From contig NZ_NOKT01000001.1 of the NCBI RefSeq assembly GCF_002237655.1, positions 124,001 through 188,000 of the forward strand: 64,000 bases of DNA. Reading direction: 5' to 3'. The position numbers and the translations under genes were made by a program. How positions within the stretch are numbered: the first letter of the stretch is position 1; the number at the start of each line of letters is the position of its first letter. Shown here piece after piece: positions 59,993 to 64,000 of the stretch. The notes below the pieces were generated by a model, which was not told the DNA's origin, did not search any database, and saw nothing but the letters and a program-made list of their open reading frames with translations. This DNA is from Streptomyces sp. XY006. GTDB taxonomy: Bacteria; Actinomycetota; Actinomycetes; Streptomycetales; Streptomycetaceae.

Positions 59993-60723
59993 CTCGACCT
60001 CACATCCGGCGGGCATGAGCCTTCCGGGGTCACCGGACGGAGCACCGTCAGGGACTTCTCGTGTCGGATCCTCATGGCGAAGGGGAATCTGTCCAGTTCC
60101 AGGCAGAGGGCGACGTCGTCGGGGTGGGTGCCTTCTCGTGTGCCGTTGGTGAGTTCCGCCGCGGCGCGGGACGTTCTCGCGCGGTGGAGGTAGGGGGCCG
60201 GCGTGACGTCGGTTCCGGACATGCGGTGGCTGATGTACTCGGCGCAGGCCAGGTCCTCCTCCGCGCGTCCGTCCTCCCCGGTGACGACGAACGTCACCGG
60301 GCCCGGGCCATGGGCCCGCAGGAACCGTGCGGTCGGGCCCGCCACGACGAAGCTCGCGCACAGCACCAGGGGCGCGTCGGCGACGGCCAGGGCGCCGACG
60401 GTCCCTGCCGTCGTCTTCTGCACCAGCGTGCGACCGGTGAAGTCACGCGACCGCAGCCGCCCGGGGGAGTTGACCGCGTCGAAGCCCGCCGCCGGAGGAC
60501 CGTCCTTCAGCGCCAGCCAGCCCGGCCGGCTCTCCTTGAGGGCGAGTGCCTCGTCCACCGTCGACGCCAGCACGATCCGCTCGGCGCCCCGGGCGAACGC
60601 CCATGCGGCCACGGTGAAGGCCCGCATGACGTCGATGACGACCGCGACACGGGGAACGCCGGTCACCTCCGGTATGCCGACGAAGTGATGAGTCGTCGTC
60701 TTCCTCGTCTTCATCGCCTCCAT
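59989..60723 (-). CDS. 2-phosphosulfolactate phosphatase family (ComB-like) protein
   Basis: 244 residues. [40 protein letters not shown] and [20 protein letters not shown] follow the ComB pattern (the D-V-x-R-A segment and T-T-A-G loop). ComB removes phosphate from 2-phosphosulfolactate in coenzyme M synthesis, but many bacterial members have an unknown role, and no other coenzyme M gene is here. The start is ATG 60723 or ATG 60714; both fall in a 24-base direct repeat. It is the second-to-last gene of the right-hand operon. Confidence 0.8.
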
Positions 60724-60755
60724 CGCCCCATCGTCTTCATCGCCTCCATTGCCCC
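60706..60755. repeat. 24-bp direct repeat over the start of the ComB-like gene
   Basis: Positions 60706-60729 and 60732-60755 match at 23 of 24 bases, 26 bases apart. Each copy contains a GGAGG-like sequence and ATG codons on the minus strand, but the offset is not a multiple of three. A third, worn copy seems to follow up to about 60778. Confidence 0.8.
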
Positions 60756-60784
60756 CGTCGCCTTCGTTGCCTCGATGGACCCGG

Positions 60785-61579
60785 TCAGCACGGGCTGCGC
60801 CATACCCCCAGCTCCGGCTTCTTCAGCATCGACGAAAGGCCCAGCCGCCGGGACTGGGCGCAGAAGCCGCTGCGCCGTTGCGTGTACTCCACGTGGAACA
60901 CCGCCTTGCCCGCCTCGACGAACGGGGAGAGCGCGTCGCACTCGTCGTACTGGGCGCACTCCTCGTTGACCGCGAAGTCGAAGTGGGACACGAGCTGGGG
61001 GATCTGGGGGAGGTCGTTCTTCAGTCCGACGGACAGGCCCCGCTCGTGGGCGATGGCCGCGATCATGCGGTTGTACGCGAGCTGGTCGCCCGCGCTCAGC
61101 GGAAAGCCCGTGTCGTTGCCGTAGCCCTCCATCAGATCGGGCTCCACCGCGTCGAAGCCCTTGTCGCGGCACATGTCGAAGCGGCGTTCCATGATCGGGC
61201 GCAGGACGTCCCGCTGCCGGATGTCCAGCCAGCGTTCGCCCTTCCAGCCGTTGGGCTCGCCCAGCACCGAGCGCGGGAAGGCGCCCCGGTCCGGCCGGAA
61301 GTCCTCCCACGCGCCGACGTTGACGTAGCAGATGACCTTCCGGCCCGCGCGGTGCAGCCGGGTCACGTCCGCCGCGGAGTTCTCGAAGCCGTCGATGTCG
61401 TAGACGGGCACATCGGCCGACGGATCCACCCTGCCGTCGAGTTGCCACTGCCAGGCGAGGCCCGGACGGGGCTTCCACCGCGGCTCGGCGGTGCCGGAGC
61501 CGCCGTCCGAGCAGCCCGTCAGCACCGCTGCCGCCAGCCCGGTCAGCAGGGCCGCGCCGGCCAGGACCCGCCTTCTCAT
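60785..61579 (-). CDS. Endo alpha-1,4 polygalactosaminidase (GH114) lipoprotein
   Basis: 264 residues. The signal ends in the lipobox AVLTGC (Cys about 23). The mature part is GH114: [72 protein letters not shown] (likely catalytic acids) and [20 protein letters not shown]. It cuts alpha-1,4-linked galactosamine polymers outside the cell, like fungal Ega3 and the hydrolase part of PelA. The start is ATG 61579, overlapping the stop of the spherulin-4 gene (ATGA). Confidence 0.92.
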
Positions 61580-62238
61580 CGCTCCGCCCCGGTGAGGGCC
61601 GGCGTCAACCGGGCCCAGGGGTTGGGCGGTTCGCCCGTCACCGGCCCGCAGACCGCCGCTCCGCGCTCGTGCGCCGTACGCACGGCGAGCGGAACGAGCG
61701 CGTCGGGCACGCCGTAGACCAGGTGGCACAGCCGCTCGGGCGGATGGCGTGCCGTCCACGCCGGGCGGCTGAACGCGGAGACGTACGTCGACCAGTGCCC
61801 CTCGAAGGTGACGGTCAGGTCGGCGAGGCGGGCGTACCCCGGCGCCGGATGGACCCCGGGGTTGAGGACGACCGTCCCGGCACCCAGCCGGCGCACCGTC
61901 CGCACCAGCCGGCGACAGGCCGCGAGCCCGTCCGGCGTCGCCGTCACCCGGTCCAGGAAGCAGCCGTCCGCCGCGTACCACTCCCGGTGACGGCGTACGT
62001 CCTCGGTGATCTCCGCTAGGTCGCGCACCCCGTAGTCGGTGTCGACGTAGCCCAGCAGCCGCGCCCCCGCGGCCCGCAGCGCACCGGCCGCGGCCGTGAA
62101 CCCCGGGTCGGGGACCTCGCCCGGGCCGCTCGCCGGGTTCAGGACGACTCCGTAGGTGCGGTCGGCCGCGGTGATCAGCCGGTGCCAGGCACCCGGGTCC
62201 TCGGCCGGGTGGACGTACAGCGGAATCAGCAGACTCAC
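61576..62238 (-). CDS. Spherulation-specific family 4 (Sph3-like) glycosidase
   Basis: 220 residues. SLLIPLYVHPAEDPGAWHRL is the usual start of the family. YGVVLNPASGPGEVPDPGFT, LLGYVDTDYGVR and VVLNPGVHPAPGYARLADLT complete the barrel, with acids in the D-T-D-Y-G and F-L-D-R-V segments. Fungal Sph3 is a GH135 enzyme needed to make galactosaminogalactan. There is no signal, so it may act in the cytoplasm or be exported otherwise. The start is GTG 62238, overlapping the epimerase stop (GTGA); the frame is open to 62259. Confidence 0.88.
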   Translation of the reverse strand: MSLLIPLYVHPAEDPGAWHRLITAADRTYGVVLNPASGPGEVPDPGFTAAAGALRAAGARLLGYVDTDYGVRDLAEITEDVRRHREWYAADGCFLDRVTATPDGLAACRRLVRTVRRLGAGTVVLNPGVHPAPGYARLADLTVTFEGHWSTYVSAFSRPAWTARHPPERLCHLVYGVPDALVPLAVRTAHERGAAVCGPVTGEPPNPWARLTPALTGAER

Positions 62239-63128
62239 GGGGTGCGGCCGCCTTCCCACAGGGCGAGCAGCGCCTCACCGAGGCTGTGGGCCGGGCGCCA
62301 GCCCAGTGCCTCCTCGGCGGCGCCGATGTCGGAACACTGCCACGACACCAGCGCCGACCGGGCCGAACCCGCCGTGGTCTCCTCGATCCGGCCCCGGAAA
62401 CCGGCGAGGTGGGCGAGGGTGCGCACCAGGTCGCGCACCGGCACCGCCCGGCCCCCGCCGATGTTGAGGACCGGCGGCAGCGGGCCGGGGGCCGTGGCCG
62501 CGAGCAGGGCGGCCCGTGCCACGTCGCGTACGTCGACGAAGTCGCGGTGGGCGGACAGGTCGCCGAGCCGCAGCACCGCCTCCGGGTCGGACCCGGCCTC
62601 GCGCAGCAGCGCGGCGATCCGGCCGGGCAGCCCGGTGGGCGGCGCTCCGGCACCCACCGGGTTGCCCACCCGCAGGACCACCGCGTCCAGGCCCGAGGTG
62701 GTCACCGTGACCGTGCCCGCGAGTTTGGTCGCACCGTAGGGGCCGACCGGGCGGGTGGCCGCCGCCTCCGTGACCGGCGCGTCGGGGATGCCTGGGCCGT
62801 ACTCGGCGGCCGAGCCCAGGTGCACAAGGCGGGCGGCGGGGGCCGCCGCCCGCAACGCGGCGCACAGGACGGCCGGACCGCGGGTGTTGACCTCGGCGAG
62901 GGTGACGGCGTCGCCGCCGGTCGCGCCCGCACAGTTGATCACCGTGTCGGGCGCGGCCGGCGCGAGGGTCTTCGCCAGCTGCTCCGGGCCGACCCGGGCG
63001 AGGTCGACGTCGAGGTCGGCGGCCGGCGACCGGCCGCCGGTGAGGACCAGCGTGCCGGGCAGGGCACGCAGCCGCTCGGCGACGTGGGCGCCCAGATAGC
63101 CGGTGGAGCCCAGGACGAGAATGCGCAT
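62235..63128 (-). CDS. NAD-dependent epimerase/dehydratase
   Basis: 297 residues, extended SDR fold. MRILVLGSTGYLGAHVAERL carries G-x-x-G-x-x-G (about 7-13). LVHLGSAAEYGPG and PVGPYGATKLAG give the Ser and the Tyr-x3-Lys. DLSAHRDFVDVRDVARAALL and LNIGGGRAVPVRDL follow as in nucleotide-sugar enzymes. It likely makes or changes an NDP-hexose(amine) for the polymer. It starts at ATG 63128, 7 bases after the nucleotidyltransferase. Confidence 0.9.
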   Translation of the reverse strand: MRILVLGSTGYLGAHVAERLRALPGTLVLTGGRSPAADLDVDLARVGPEQLAKTLAPAAPDTVINCAGATGGDAVTLAEVNTRGPAVLCAALRAAAPAARLVHLGSAAEYGPGIPDAPVTEAAATRPVGPYGATKLAGTVTVTTSGLDAVVLRVGNPVGAGAPPTGLPGRIAALLREAGSDPEAVLRLGDLSAHRDFVDVRDVARAALLAATAPGPLPPVLNIGGGRAVPVRDLVRTLAHLAGFRGRIEETTAGSARSALVSWQCSDIGAAEEALGWRPAHSLGEALLALWEGGRTP

Positions 63129-63135
63129 GGCGTGC

Positions 63136-63849
63136 TCAGGCTCCCTTGAGCAGAAGCGACTTGCGGGTGGTGAACTCGGCGTTGGCCTGGTCGTAGTCGT
63201 CCGGGCGGCCGATGTCCAGCCAGTAGCCGTCGAACTCGTAGGCGTGCGGCTGGTTGGAGGACTTCAGCAGGTCGAGGACCAACTCGTCGAAGCCGAGCGG
63301 GAGTCCGGGCGTGTACCCCTCCAGCGTGGAGCGCGACAGACCGTACACGCCCATCGAGACGCGGTAGTCCATGCTCGGCTTCTCGGTGAACGCCACGACC
63401 TTGCTGGCGTCGGTGGTCAGCACCCCGAAGTCGATGTGCACCTTGCGGGCGTACGTGGCGATGGTCAGCGGAGCGCCGGAGTCCCGGTGGCGCCGCAGGA
63501 CGTCGGCGTAGTCGAGGTCGGTCAGGACGTCGCCGTTCATCACCAGGAAGGTCTCGGGCAGCCGGTCGCGCAGGGTCAGCAGCGGGCCCATGGTGCCGAG
63601 CGGGCTCTCCTCGGTCGCGTAGTCGACGGACAGGCCCCACTGGGAGCCGTCGCCGACGTAGGCGCGGATGATCTCGCCGAGGTGGCCGATCGCGATGGTG
63701 CAGCTGGTGAAGCCGGCGGTGGAGAGCTGGCGCAGCACGATCTCCAGGATCGCGTGCTGGTCGCCGATGGGGACGAGCGGCTTGGGCAGCGCCGTGGTGT
63801 ACGGCCGCAGCCGGACGCCCTTGCCTCCCGCCAGGATCACTGCGTGCAT
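63136..63849 (-). CDS. Sugar-phosphate nucleotidyltransferase
   Basis: 237 residues. MHAVILAGGKGVRLRPYTTA and LPKPLVPIGDQHAILEIVLR form the G-x-G-x-R...K-P signature. VMNGDVLTDLDY holds the metal-binding Asp, and LDIGRPDDYDQAN is the C-terminal motif. It makes NDP-sugar from sugar phosphate and NTP in the cytoplasm. The start is ATG 63849 behind AGGAGGAG. It lies 43 bases after the partial epimerase. Confidence 0.93.
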   Translation of the reverse strand: MHAVILAGGKGVRLRPYTTALPKPLVPIGDQHAILEIVLRQLSTAGFTSCTIAIGHLGEIIRAYVGDGSQWGLSVDYATEESPLGTMGPLLTLRDRLPETFLVMNGDVLTDLDYADVLRRHRDSGAPLTIATYARKVHIDFGVLTTDASKVVAFTEKPSMDYRVSMGVYGLSRSTLEGYTPGLPLGFDELVLDLLKSSNQPHAYEFDGYWLDIGRPDDYDQANAEFTTRKSLLLKGA

Positions 63850-63892
63850 GGGGCTCCTCCTTCGTGAACGTGCGCTGACGTGCCGGACAGGG

Positions 63893-64000
63893 TCAGATGT
63901 TGTAGATGCCGGTCTTGTAGCGGGCGAGGTTGGCCGGGTCGCGGAAGAACGCCACGGTGTGGGCGAGGCCCTCCTCCAGGGTGTGCGCGGGCTGCCAGCC
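63893..64000 (-). CDS. NAD-dependent epimerase/dehydratase, C-terminal fragment
   Basis: The last 35 residues of a gene that continues past the right edge, read by translating the minus strand: GWQPAHTLEEGLAHTVAFFR, then DPANLARYKTGIYNI. This is the usual end of GalE/RmlB-like nucleotide-sugar epimerases. It is the first visible gene of the right-hand operon. Confidence 0.75.
   Translation of the reverse strand, partial: GWQPAHTLEEGLAHTVAFFRDPANLARYKTGIYNI

What the first reader, a model, noticed from the sequence alone, without database searches (positions are those of the whole stretch)
60785..64000. Edge of a galactosamine-polymer locus resembling fungal galactosaminogalactan and bacterial Pel sets
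An epimerase, a spherulin-4 protein (GH135 family, as Sph3) and a GH114 hydrolase (as Ega3) are directly linked with ATGA/GTGA overlaps, behind a nucleotidyltransferase and another epimerase. In Aspergillus the same three activities make and trim galactosaminogalactan; PelA plays a like part in bacteria. A streptomycete version would be a new surface polymer system.
Basis: partly seen in the sequence, partly recalled or inferred. Interest (0 to 1): 0.6.

Follow-up and report, generated by a model that had tools for sequence, protein, structure and literature searches.

The report
Streptomyces Pel-like sugar polymer operon
This is one end of a conserved Streptomyces gene set that appears to make, export, deacetylate and trim a sticky amino-sugar polymer like those of fungal and bacterial biofilms, probably with an altered sugar building block.

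Summary
In detail: GH114 and Spherulin-4 (GH135) genes sit in GTGA/ATGA-coupled order behind an SDR and a nucleotidyltransferase. The eight-gene operon agd3-pelF-tm-legB-ntp-sdr2-sph-gh114 is conserved: of the 80 closest named loci, 64 are long enough; 64 of 64 hold the first seven genes, 53 of 64 also gh114 (one a fragment). The kind is not new: Bamford 2020 reported actinobacterial agd3 operons with glycosyltransferase, membrane protein, GH114 and spherulin-4. The 'epimerases' look more like a LegB-type 4,6-dehydratase and a 4-reductase, with a dedicated nucleotidyltransferase. This cassette is absent from a second, 'compact' locus type. PelF alone is over-diverged between the types, and the residue beside the GH114 nucleophile is Leu/Val in cassette loci and Asn in well-aligned non-cassette loci. 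That suggests a Pel/GAG-like polymer with a different, perhaps 6-deoxy, amino sugar. No chemistry is shown.

The parts
60785..61579 (-). GH114 endo-alpha-1,4-galactosaminidase-like lipoprotein (Ega3-like), lipobox LTGC; nucleophile D148 and acid/base E206 (protein numbering) conserved
   Evidence: PF03537 290.1 bits; PDB Ega3 6oj1 E 1.3e-55; conserved residues
61576..62238 (-). Spherulin-4 / GH135 (Sph3-like), no signal peptide in this gene from either start, predicted cytosolic; GTG start at 62238 (GTGA) or 62259
   Evidence: PF12138 124.2 bits; Sph3 5c5g E 2.4e-18; N-termini of orthologues; sequence
62235..63128 (-). sdr2: extended SDR, best PDB match GDP-6-deoxy-D-lyxo-4-hexulose reductase; proposed 4-keto reductase (or 4-epimerase)
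   Evidence: PF01370; 2pk3 E 1.3e-16, 6wjb E 3.6e-16
63136..63849 (-). ntp: sugar-1-phosphate nucleotidyltransferase, closest to mannose-1-phosphate guanylyltransferases
   Evidence: PF00483; NF052502 140.7 bits, below its cut-off of 440; 7d72 GMPPB E 2.3e-29
63893..64000 (-). 3' end of legB-like SDR (333 aa; L003:3894-4895, continues to 64894 in window numbering). Upstream, beyond the edge, same strand: tm 64932-66350, pelF 66347-67921, agd3-like 67967-70096 or 70201
   Evidence: TIGR04180 450 bits, cut-off 475; pelF NF038011 169.9 bits, cut-off 100; tm MOP fold; agd3 fold 6nwz

Best explanation
The window edge holds the downstream half of an operon for a Pel/GAG-like, partly de-N-acetylated, cationic exopolysaccharide. 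Inferred mechanism: legB, ntp and sdr2 make a nucleotide-activated sugar. PelF polymerises it in the cytosol. The MOP-fold protein takes the chain across the membrane. A signal-peptide-less Spherulin-4 trims acetylated chain on the cytosolic side. The secreted Agd3-like enzyme deacetylates the chain outside. The GH114 lipoprotein cuts deacetylated stretches at the cell surface. Shown here: gene content, families, folds of predicted models, conservation, catalytic residues, operon order. Inferred: substrate, export and every activity. The sugar cassette probably changes or adds a monomer relative to plain GalNAc.
For: Families and folds: GH114, GH135, PelF equivalog over cut-off, Agd3 fold Z 26.9, rmsd 2.7 over 548 residues, MOP fold Z 20.9. 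Agd3 catalytic residues (motifs from PMC7229062) have invariant counterparts D303/D304, H394/H398, R507, H588 in 28 homologues (mapping by motif, mine). Conservation: 64 of 64 and 53 of 64 long loci among the closest 80. legB in 15 of 61 Streptomyces genomes, in all 15 at 3.1-4.2 kb from an agd3 match (in G016 an agd3 fragment). Cassette-linked change: PelF divergence ratio 1.33 against 1.01-1.08 for four other genes; 18 fixed differences of 464 columns against 1 of 629 in Agd3; GH114 site 149. A related locus without the cassette has a true GalE (337 bits, cut-off 262.3; L112).
Against: No activity or polymer is known to me for any of these Streptomyces genes. The agd3-like protein here scores under the Pfam Agd3_CE cut-off (18.7 against 27.6) and finds no PDB sequence match; the link rests on a predicted fold (mean pLDDT 77.5). 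11 of 64 long loci lack gh114. No PelG by sequence, no PelD/PelE in the operon. GH114 is in 55 of 61 genomes but agd3 in 33 of 61, so GH114 has other roles too. One genome (G028, 1300 contigs) has a cassette-type agd3 but no close legB. With one glycosyltransferase in the operon, a second monomer would need a promiscuous PelF. PelF is well conserved, so the fixed-difference count favours it; the normalised distances are the fairer test.
Confidence: 0.75

Rival explanations
1. The polymer is ordinary alpha-1,4-GalNAc/GalN as in Pel or GAG; the cassette merely raises supply of a standard UDP-sugar, the SDRs being 4-epimerases.
For: 6wjb (its identity as PelX is recalled; the chain is labelled only 'NAD-dependent epimerase/dehydratase') is the top PDB match of legB by a narrow margin and second for sdr2. 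A locus in another family (L112) has GalE in that role. Type C loci have sdr2 without legB or ntp beside it.
Against: LegB motif S-T-S-E-T-Y carries the Glu found in the dehydratase 1r66; 6wjb has Ala there. GalE score 141.7 under cut-off 262.3, unlike the L112 gene. A dedicated nucleotidyltransferase is not needed for UDP-GalNAc. PelF and GH114 residues follow the cassette.
Confidence: 0.35
2. The operon is for attack: it breaks down polymers of fungi or other bacteria rather than making one.
For: GH114 occurs in genomes with no agd3 match (for example G019, G026, G027, G031, G037, G057), and this genome has a second copy beside a broken sph.
Against: PelF, the MOP-fold protein and sugar-nucleotide genes are in 64 of 64 long loci; Spherulin-4 has no signal peptide here.
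Confidence: 0.05
3. The locus makes a wall-bound glycan or protein glycan unrelated to galactosamine, reusing the enzyme folds.
For: MOP-fold proteins also include lipid-linked glycan flippases WzxE and MurJ; LegB serves legionaminic acid synthesis in Campylobacter (PMC7439481, passages).
Against: Four hallmark families of Pel/GAG (PelF, Agd3, GH135, GH114) are together, with catalytic residues kept; none of the eight operon proteins matched a ligase, acyltransferase or nonulosonate family.
Confidence: 0.1

Closest known systems
Actinobacterial agd3-containing operons (Bamford et al. 2020, PMC7229062; passages read)
   Same: Agd3 homologue, cytoplasmic glycosyltransferase, multi-spanning membrane protein, GH114, and spherulin-4 in some Actinobacteria, as stated in the text
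   Different: 'dehydratase' and 'nucleotidyl' do not occur in its main text; cassette, compact type and linked residue changes are not mentioned in the passages seen. Fig. 8c and supplements were not visible to me
Aspergillus fumigatus galactosaminogalactan cluster (uge3, gtb3, sph3, ega3, agd3)
   Same: Agd3, Sph3 and Ega3 counterparts
   Different: Epimerase Uge3 replaced by legB-ntp-sdr2; Gtb3 (one transmembrane synthase, PMC7229062 and PMC9030451 passages) replaced by PelF plus a separate MOP-fold protein; Spherulin-4 has no signal or anchor here
Gram-positive pelDEADAFG operon (Whitfield et al. 2020, PMC7112168; section 6 and passages read)
   Same: PelF; a MOP-fold protein in the place of PelG
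   Different: No PelD or PelE in the operon, no PelG family match in the genome; Agd3-type deacetylase, GH114 and GH135 hydrolases
Campylobacter LegB route from GDP-GlcNAc to legionaminic acid (PMC7439481, passages; PtmE recalled)
   Same: LegB-type dehydratase, here beside a nucleotidyltransferase
   Different: No aminotransferase or nonulosonate synthase among the eight proteins; an RMD-like SDR instead

Membership tests
PelF (NCBIfam NF038011) | score over curated cut-off | tested here: met
   169.9 bits against 100, residues 33-492 of 524; DUF3492 206.5 bits
GH114 | Pfam model and Asp/Glu catalytic pair | tested here: met
   290.1 bits; D148/E206 in 65 of 68 cassette-locus rows, the other 3 being fragments, and 16 of 16 compact rows; pair from PMC12054363
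GH114 | cleaves alpha-1,4-galactosamine polymer | not testable with these tools
   no assay
GH135 / Spherulin-4 | Pfam model, nucleophile Asp and acid/base Glu | tested here: met
   124.2 bits; D103 and E153 in 82 of 82 cassette rows and 23 of 23 compact rows
CE18 / Agd3 | three-domain Agd3 fold | tested here: met
   6nwz Z 26.9, rmsd 2.7, 548 residues, best of 1000 chains; Foldseek E 1.5e-27; predicted model, pLDDT 77.5
CE18 / Agd3 | Pfam Agd3_CE over its cut-off | tested here: not met
   18.7 against 27.6 bits; 17 of 28 homologues match at E up to 0.01
CE18 / Agd3 | catalytic motifs CM1-4 | tested here: met
   D303 D304, H394 H398, R507, H588 invariant in 28 of 28; assignment by motif, not by a printed structural alignment
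Pel operon | PelG (PF16933) | tested here: not met
   no match in the genome; tm protein 0 Pfam families. Fold is MOP superfamily
Pel operon | PelD and PelE in the operon | tested here: not met
   no such family among the eight operon proteins; rest of genome not searched
GAG cluster | Uge3/GalE-type 4-epimerase | tested here: not met
   legB GalE score 141.7 and sdr2 53.1, cut-off 262.3; the L112 gene passes the same model at 337
GAG cluster | single transmembrane synthase Gtb3 | tested here: not met
   PelF and tm are separate genes, GTGA-coupled
LegB (TIGR04180) | score over curated cut-off | tested here: not met
   450 against 475 bits, the best of its NCBIfam matches; HTSTSETYGTA and YAASK invariant in 83 rows

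The most novel reading that the evidence does not exclude
Streptomyces make a 6-deoxy relative of Pel/GAG: LegB, the nucleotidyltransferase and sdr2 make a GDP- (or other NDP-) linked 6-deoxy-GalNAc (D-FucNAc), a specialised PelF polymerises it alone or with GalNAc, and the GH114 partner has swapped Asn for Leu/Val beside its nucleophile to fit a sugar without O6. Some species carry both this and the compact, plain version, hence two different cationic polymers.
Probability: 0.25. Interest if true: 0.78.

Novelty: new variant of a known kind. Interest (0 to 1): 0.5.

Why it matters
Cationic amino-sugar polymers hold fungal and bacterial biofilms together. A streptomycete set with most of the fungal cluster's enzymes, in both a cassette and a compact form, gives tractable soil bacteria in which to study them, and bears on the suggestion (PMC7229062) that fungi obtained the GAG cluster from bacteria. 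If the cassette changes the sugar, it gives polymers and hydrolases of new specificity, and a natural experiment on which PelF and GH114 residues set it.

Tried and rejected
Pfam for the membrane protein: only chance-level matches, to 2 families, in at most 3 of 49 members. Idea that sdr2 must be a reductase because it sits with a dehydratase: weakened, because type C loci have sdr2 with no legB or ntp next to it. Idea of a riboswitch upstream of agd3: no Rfam family (one chance match at E 0.84) and 0 of 35 predicted pairs with changes on both sides. c-di-GMP control: no GGDEF match among the operon proteins; not searched genome-wide. Trees for sph and gh114 did not finish; the tm tree is a quick one. 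Exceptions to the coupling: L142, without cassette, shows Leu at GH114 149 in a 42-bit partial match; L140's second PelF-like copy (28% identity, no cassette) has Ser at 273; three cassette GH114 rows are fragments. PelA itself was a weak fold match of the agd3-like model (9cgy, Z 11.2, rmsd 10.7).
Full report
WHERE IT LIES. The window is G000:C11:124001-188000 of an 8.25-Mb genome; the 80 closest named relatives of its agd3-like gene are all labelled Streptomyces. The genes named in the finding are real and in the stated order on the minus strand. sdr2 and sph share GTGA, sph and gh114 share ATGA, and beyond the edge pelF and tm share GTGA.

BEYOND THE EDGE. I fetched about 36 kb past 64000. 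In the same direction come, upstream of the nucleotidyltransferase: a LegB-like SDR (333 aa), a membrane protein (about 472 aa), a glycosyltransferase (524 aa) and a secreted protein (744 aa from the first start; likely start at residue 36, where GGGGAGGGGA-type sequence precedes the ATG). The glycosyltransferase passes the NCBIfam PelF equivalog (169.9 bits, cut-off 100) and has DUF3492.

THE DEACETYLASE. By sequence the link to Agd3 is weak: Pfam Agd3_CE 18.7 bits, under its cut-off of 27.6; 17 of 28 homologues match that family and 4 of 28 CBM87_Agd3 at E up to 0.01, and 3 of 28 a heparan sulfate deacetylase family; no PDB sequence match at E up to 1. The predicted structure (mean pLDDT 77.5) has Agd3 6nwz as its best match by Foldseek (E 1.5e-27) and VIA-align (Z 26.9, rmsd 2.7, 548 residues; next human heparan N-deacetylases, Z 22.1 or less). 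The residues that Bamford et al. 2020 list as base, metal triad, arginine and acid (PMC7229062, passages) have invariant counterparts by motif in all 28 rows.

THE EXPORTER. The membrane protein has no Pfam family. Its model (pLDDT 85.8; I count about 12 transmembrane helices and an N-terminal helical domain) has the MOP fold: MATE NorM Z 20.9, WzxE 14.9, MurJ 13.7 (Foldseek best E 3.3e-4). PelG's family is absent from the genome. That PelG itself belongs to the MOP superfamily is recalled, not tested.

THE HYDROLASES. GH114 aligns with Ega3 6oj1 at E 1.3e-55 (the chain is labelled endo alpha-1,4 polygalactosaminidase, and PMC7229062 names 6OJ1 as Ega3) and has a lipobox; 59 of 67 orthologue rows match a lipobox pattern, the misses including wrong starts. 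Spherulin-4 aligns with Sph3 5c5g at E 2.4e-18 and keeps its Asp and Glu. Neither of its two possible starts in this genome leaves room for a signal peptide. In 83 orthologues with a recognisable barrel start there are 5-19 residues before it; the 16 with 15 or more showed no hydrophobic stretch. In many of the 84 rows a start further upstream, inside the preceding gene, is formally possible (36 rows by 200 residues or more). I infer a cytosolic enzyme. The catalytic pairs are from PMC12054363 (passages).

THE SUGAR CASSETTE. legB scores best with TIGR04180 LegB (450 bits, cut-off 475) and under cut-off with GalE (141.7 of 262.3). Its S-T-S-E-T-Y motif has Glu where the 4,6-dehydratase 1r66 has Glu (S-T-D-E), while 6wjb, its nearest PDB match, has Ala. 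LegB of Campylobacter dehydrates GDP-GlcNAc (PMC7439481, passages). ntp is closest to GDP-mannose pyrophosphorylases. sdr2 is closest to GDP-6-deoxy-lyxo-hexulose reductase 2pk3, with 6wjb nearly as close. Taken together they point to GDP-6-deoxy sugar chemistry; none is proven.

TWO LOCUS TYPES. Agd3-like genes are in 33 of 61 Streptomyces genomes. Among the closest 80 of 238 named loci, 64 reach far enough downstream: 64 of 64 have the first seven genes including the cassette, 53 of 64 also gh114, in fixed order (one gh114 is a fragment). This list is biased to the query's own type. Other loci are compact: agd3-pelF-tm-sph-gh114 without legB, ntp and sdr2; some also lack a gh114 match, and L024 lacks sph. 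Close legB homologues (E up to 1e-100) occur in 15 of 61 genomes, one each, all 15 at 3.1-4.2 kb from agd3 (in G016 agd3 is in fragments). G028 has a cassette-type agd3 on a short contig and no close legB. In the trees of Agd3 and PelF (careful) and tm (quick) cassette and compact loci are separated by one change. Five of the 61 genomes (G006, G017, G024, G034, G038) have both types; the second locus of G017 is cut by a contig end and is typed by similarity only.

DISTRIBUTION. Outside the genus the set is rare in the samples searched: the tm profile matches 30 of 296 genomes of the class, 28 of them Streptomyces, many of these only by weak N-terminal matches; the agd3 profile matches 13 of 396 genomes of the phylum, 7 of 236 genera. 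PF12138 is in 201 of 293 genomes of the order.

COVARIATION. Divergence between cassette and compact loci, divided by divergence between the two cassette clades, is 1.33 for PelF but 1.03, 1.01, 1.08 and 1.04 for Agd3, tm, Sph and GH114. Fixed differences: PelF 18 of 464 columns, Agd3 1 of 629, tm 2 of 364, Sph 3 of 174, GH114 2 of 231. One GH114 difference is residue 149, next to the nucleophile D148: Leu with an intact catalytic pair in 65 of 68 cassette rows (the others fragments), Asn in 16 of 16 compact rows. Beyond that set: Leu in cassette loci L151 and L154; Leu and Val in the two copies of L113, a cassette locus from another family whose LegB scores 457 bits; Asn in L112 (GalE, 337 bits, over cut-off), in L139, L140, L147 and L148 (no cassette) and in this genome's second GH114. 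Ega3 has Asn there (alignment). Against: L142 (no cassette) shows Leu in a 42-bit partial match. PelF 273 is Ala in 91 and Ser in 3 of 94 covered cassette rows and 278 is Gly in 94 of 94; compact rows have Asp in 25 of 25 and Cys or Val. L113, L149, L151 and L154 (cassette) have Ala/Gly; L112, L139, L140, L142, L143, L145, L147, L148 (no cassette) have Asp or Glu with Cys, Val or Ile, but L140's second, distant copy has Ser/Val; L144, with ntp and sdr2 but no close legB, has Gly/His. Type C PelFs, which have sdr2 but no legB, have Ala or His with Gly, so PelF may follow sdr2 rather than legB. Few independent events underlie this; it is a lead.

OTHER SUGAR MODULES. L112 has GalE; L144 has ntp, sdr2, a nucleotide-sugar dehydrogenase (TIGR03026, 291.8 bits, over cut-off) and an SDR of no clear family. 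So the sugar module varies while PelF, the membrane protein and Agd3 stay.

LITERATURE. PMC7229062 (passages) already reports bacterial agd3 operons with a glycosyltransferase, a multi-spanning membrane protein and, consistently, GH114, with spherulin-4 in some Actinobacteria; it notes galactosamine polysaccharides in Streptomyces walls and an endogalactosaminidase from S. griseus, and supports transfer from bacteria to fungi. PMC7112168 (section 6; passages) describes pelDEADAFG in Gram-positives. PMC9030451: passages. In the listings of searches (26, 33, 86 and 103 list only part of their hits) I saw no paper on the function of such a Streptomyces locus; the library holds open-licence papers only. 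Seen in listings only: PMC13254593, PMC12022489, PMC11356417.

VERDICT. A real, conserved, to my knowledge uncharacterised operon of a kind predicted in 2020; the new part is the swappable sugar cassette and the linked changes in PelF and GH114.

Noticed in passing
L003:10097-10280 (window numbering 70096-70279, beyond the edge): About 180 nt upstream of agd3 are strongly conserved in cassette loci; this genome has a perfect 20-bp palindrome at L003:10244-10263, and the ribosome-binding site could pair with a CCCC-rich stretch. No Rfam family and no covariation support. Compact loci have a different recurring block upstream.
   Followed up: partly
L156 (G000:C38:10000-26000): This genome has a third type of set, PelF-like, membrane protein, sdr2-like, Spherulin-4-like; in four related loci there is no agd3 or gh114 match, and their Spherulin-4 lacks the acid/base Glu in 4 of 4 and the nucleophile Asp in 2 of 4, so it may be a pseudoenzyme. 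DUF3492, the PelF domain, is in 58 of 61 Streptomyces genomes.
   Followed up: partly
L155:8942-9922 (G000:C20): A broken Spherulin-4 fragment, closest to the compact type, sits before an intact second GH114: probably what is left of a compact locus.
   Followed up: partly
L144 (G153:C1:2827500-2847400): A distant actinobacterial relative carries agd3, pelF, tm, ntp, sdr2 and a nucleotide-sugar dehydrogenase: a further sugar module.
   Followed up: partly
60700-60785, window: Short near-repeats (GCGATGGAGGCGATGAAGACG-like) lie between gh114 and the downstream 2-phosphosulfolactate-phosphatase-like gene.
   Followed up: no
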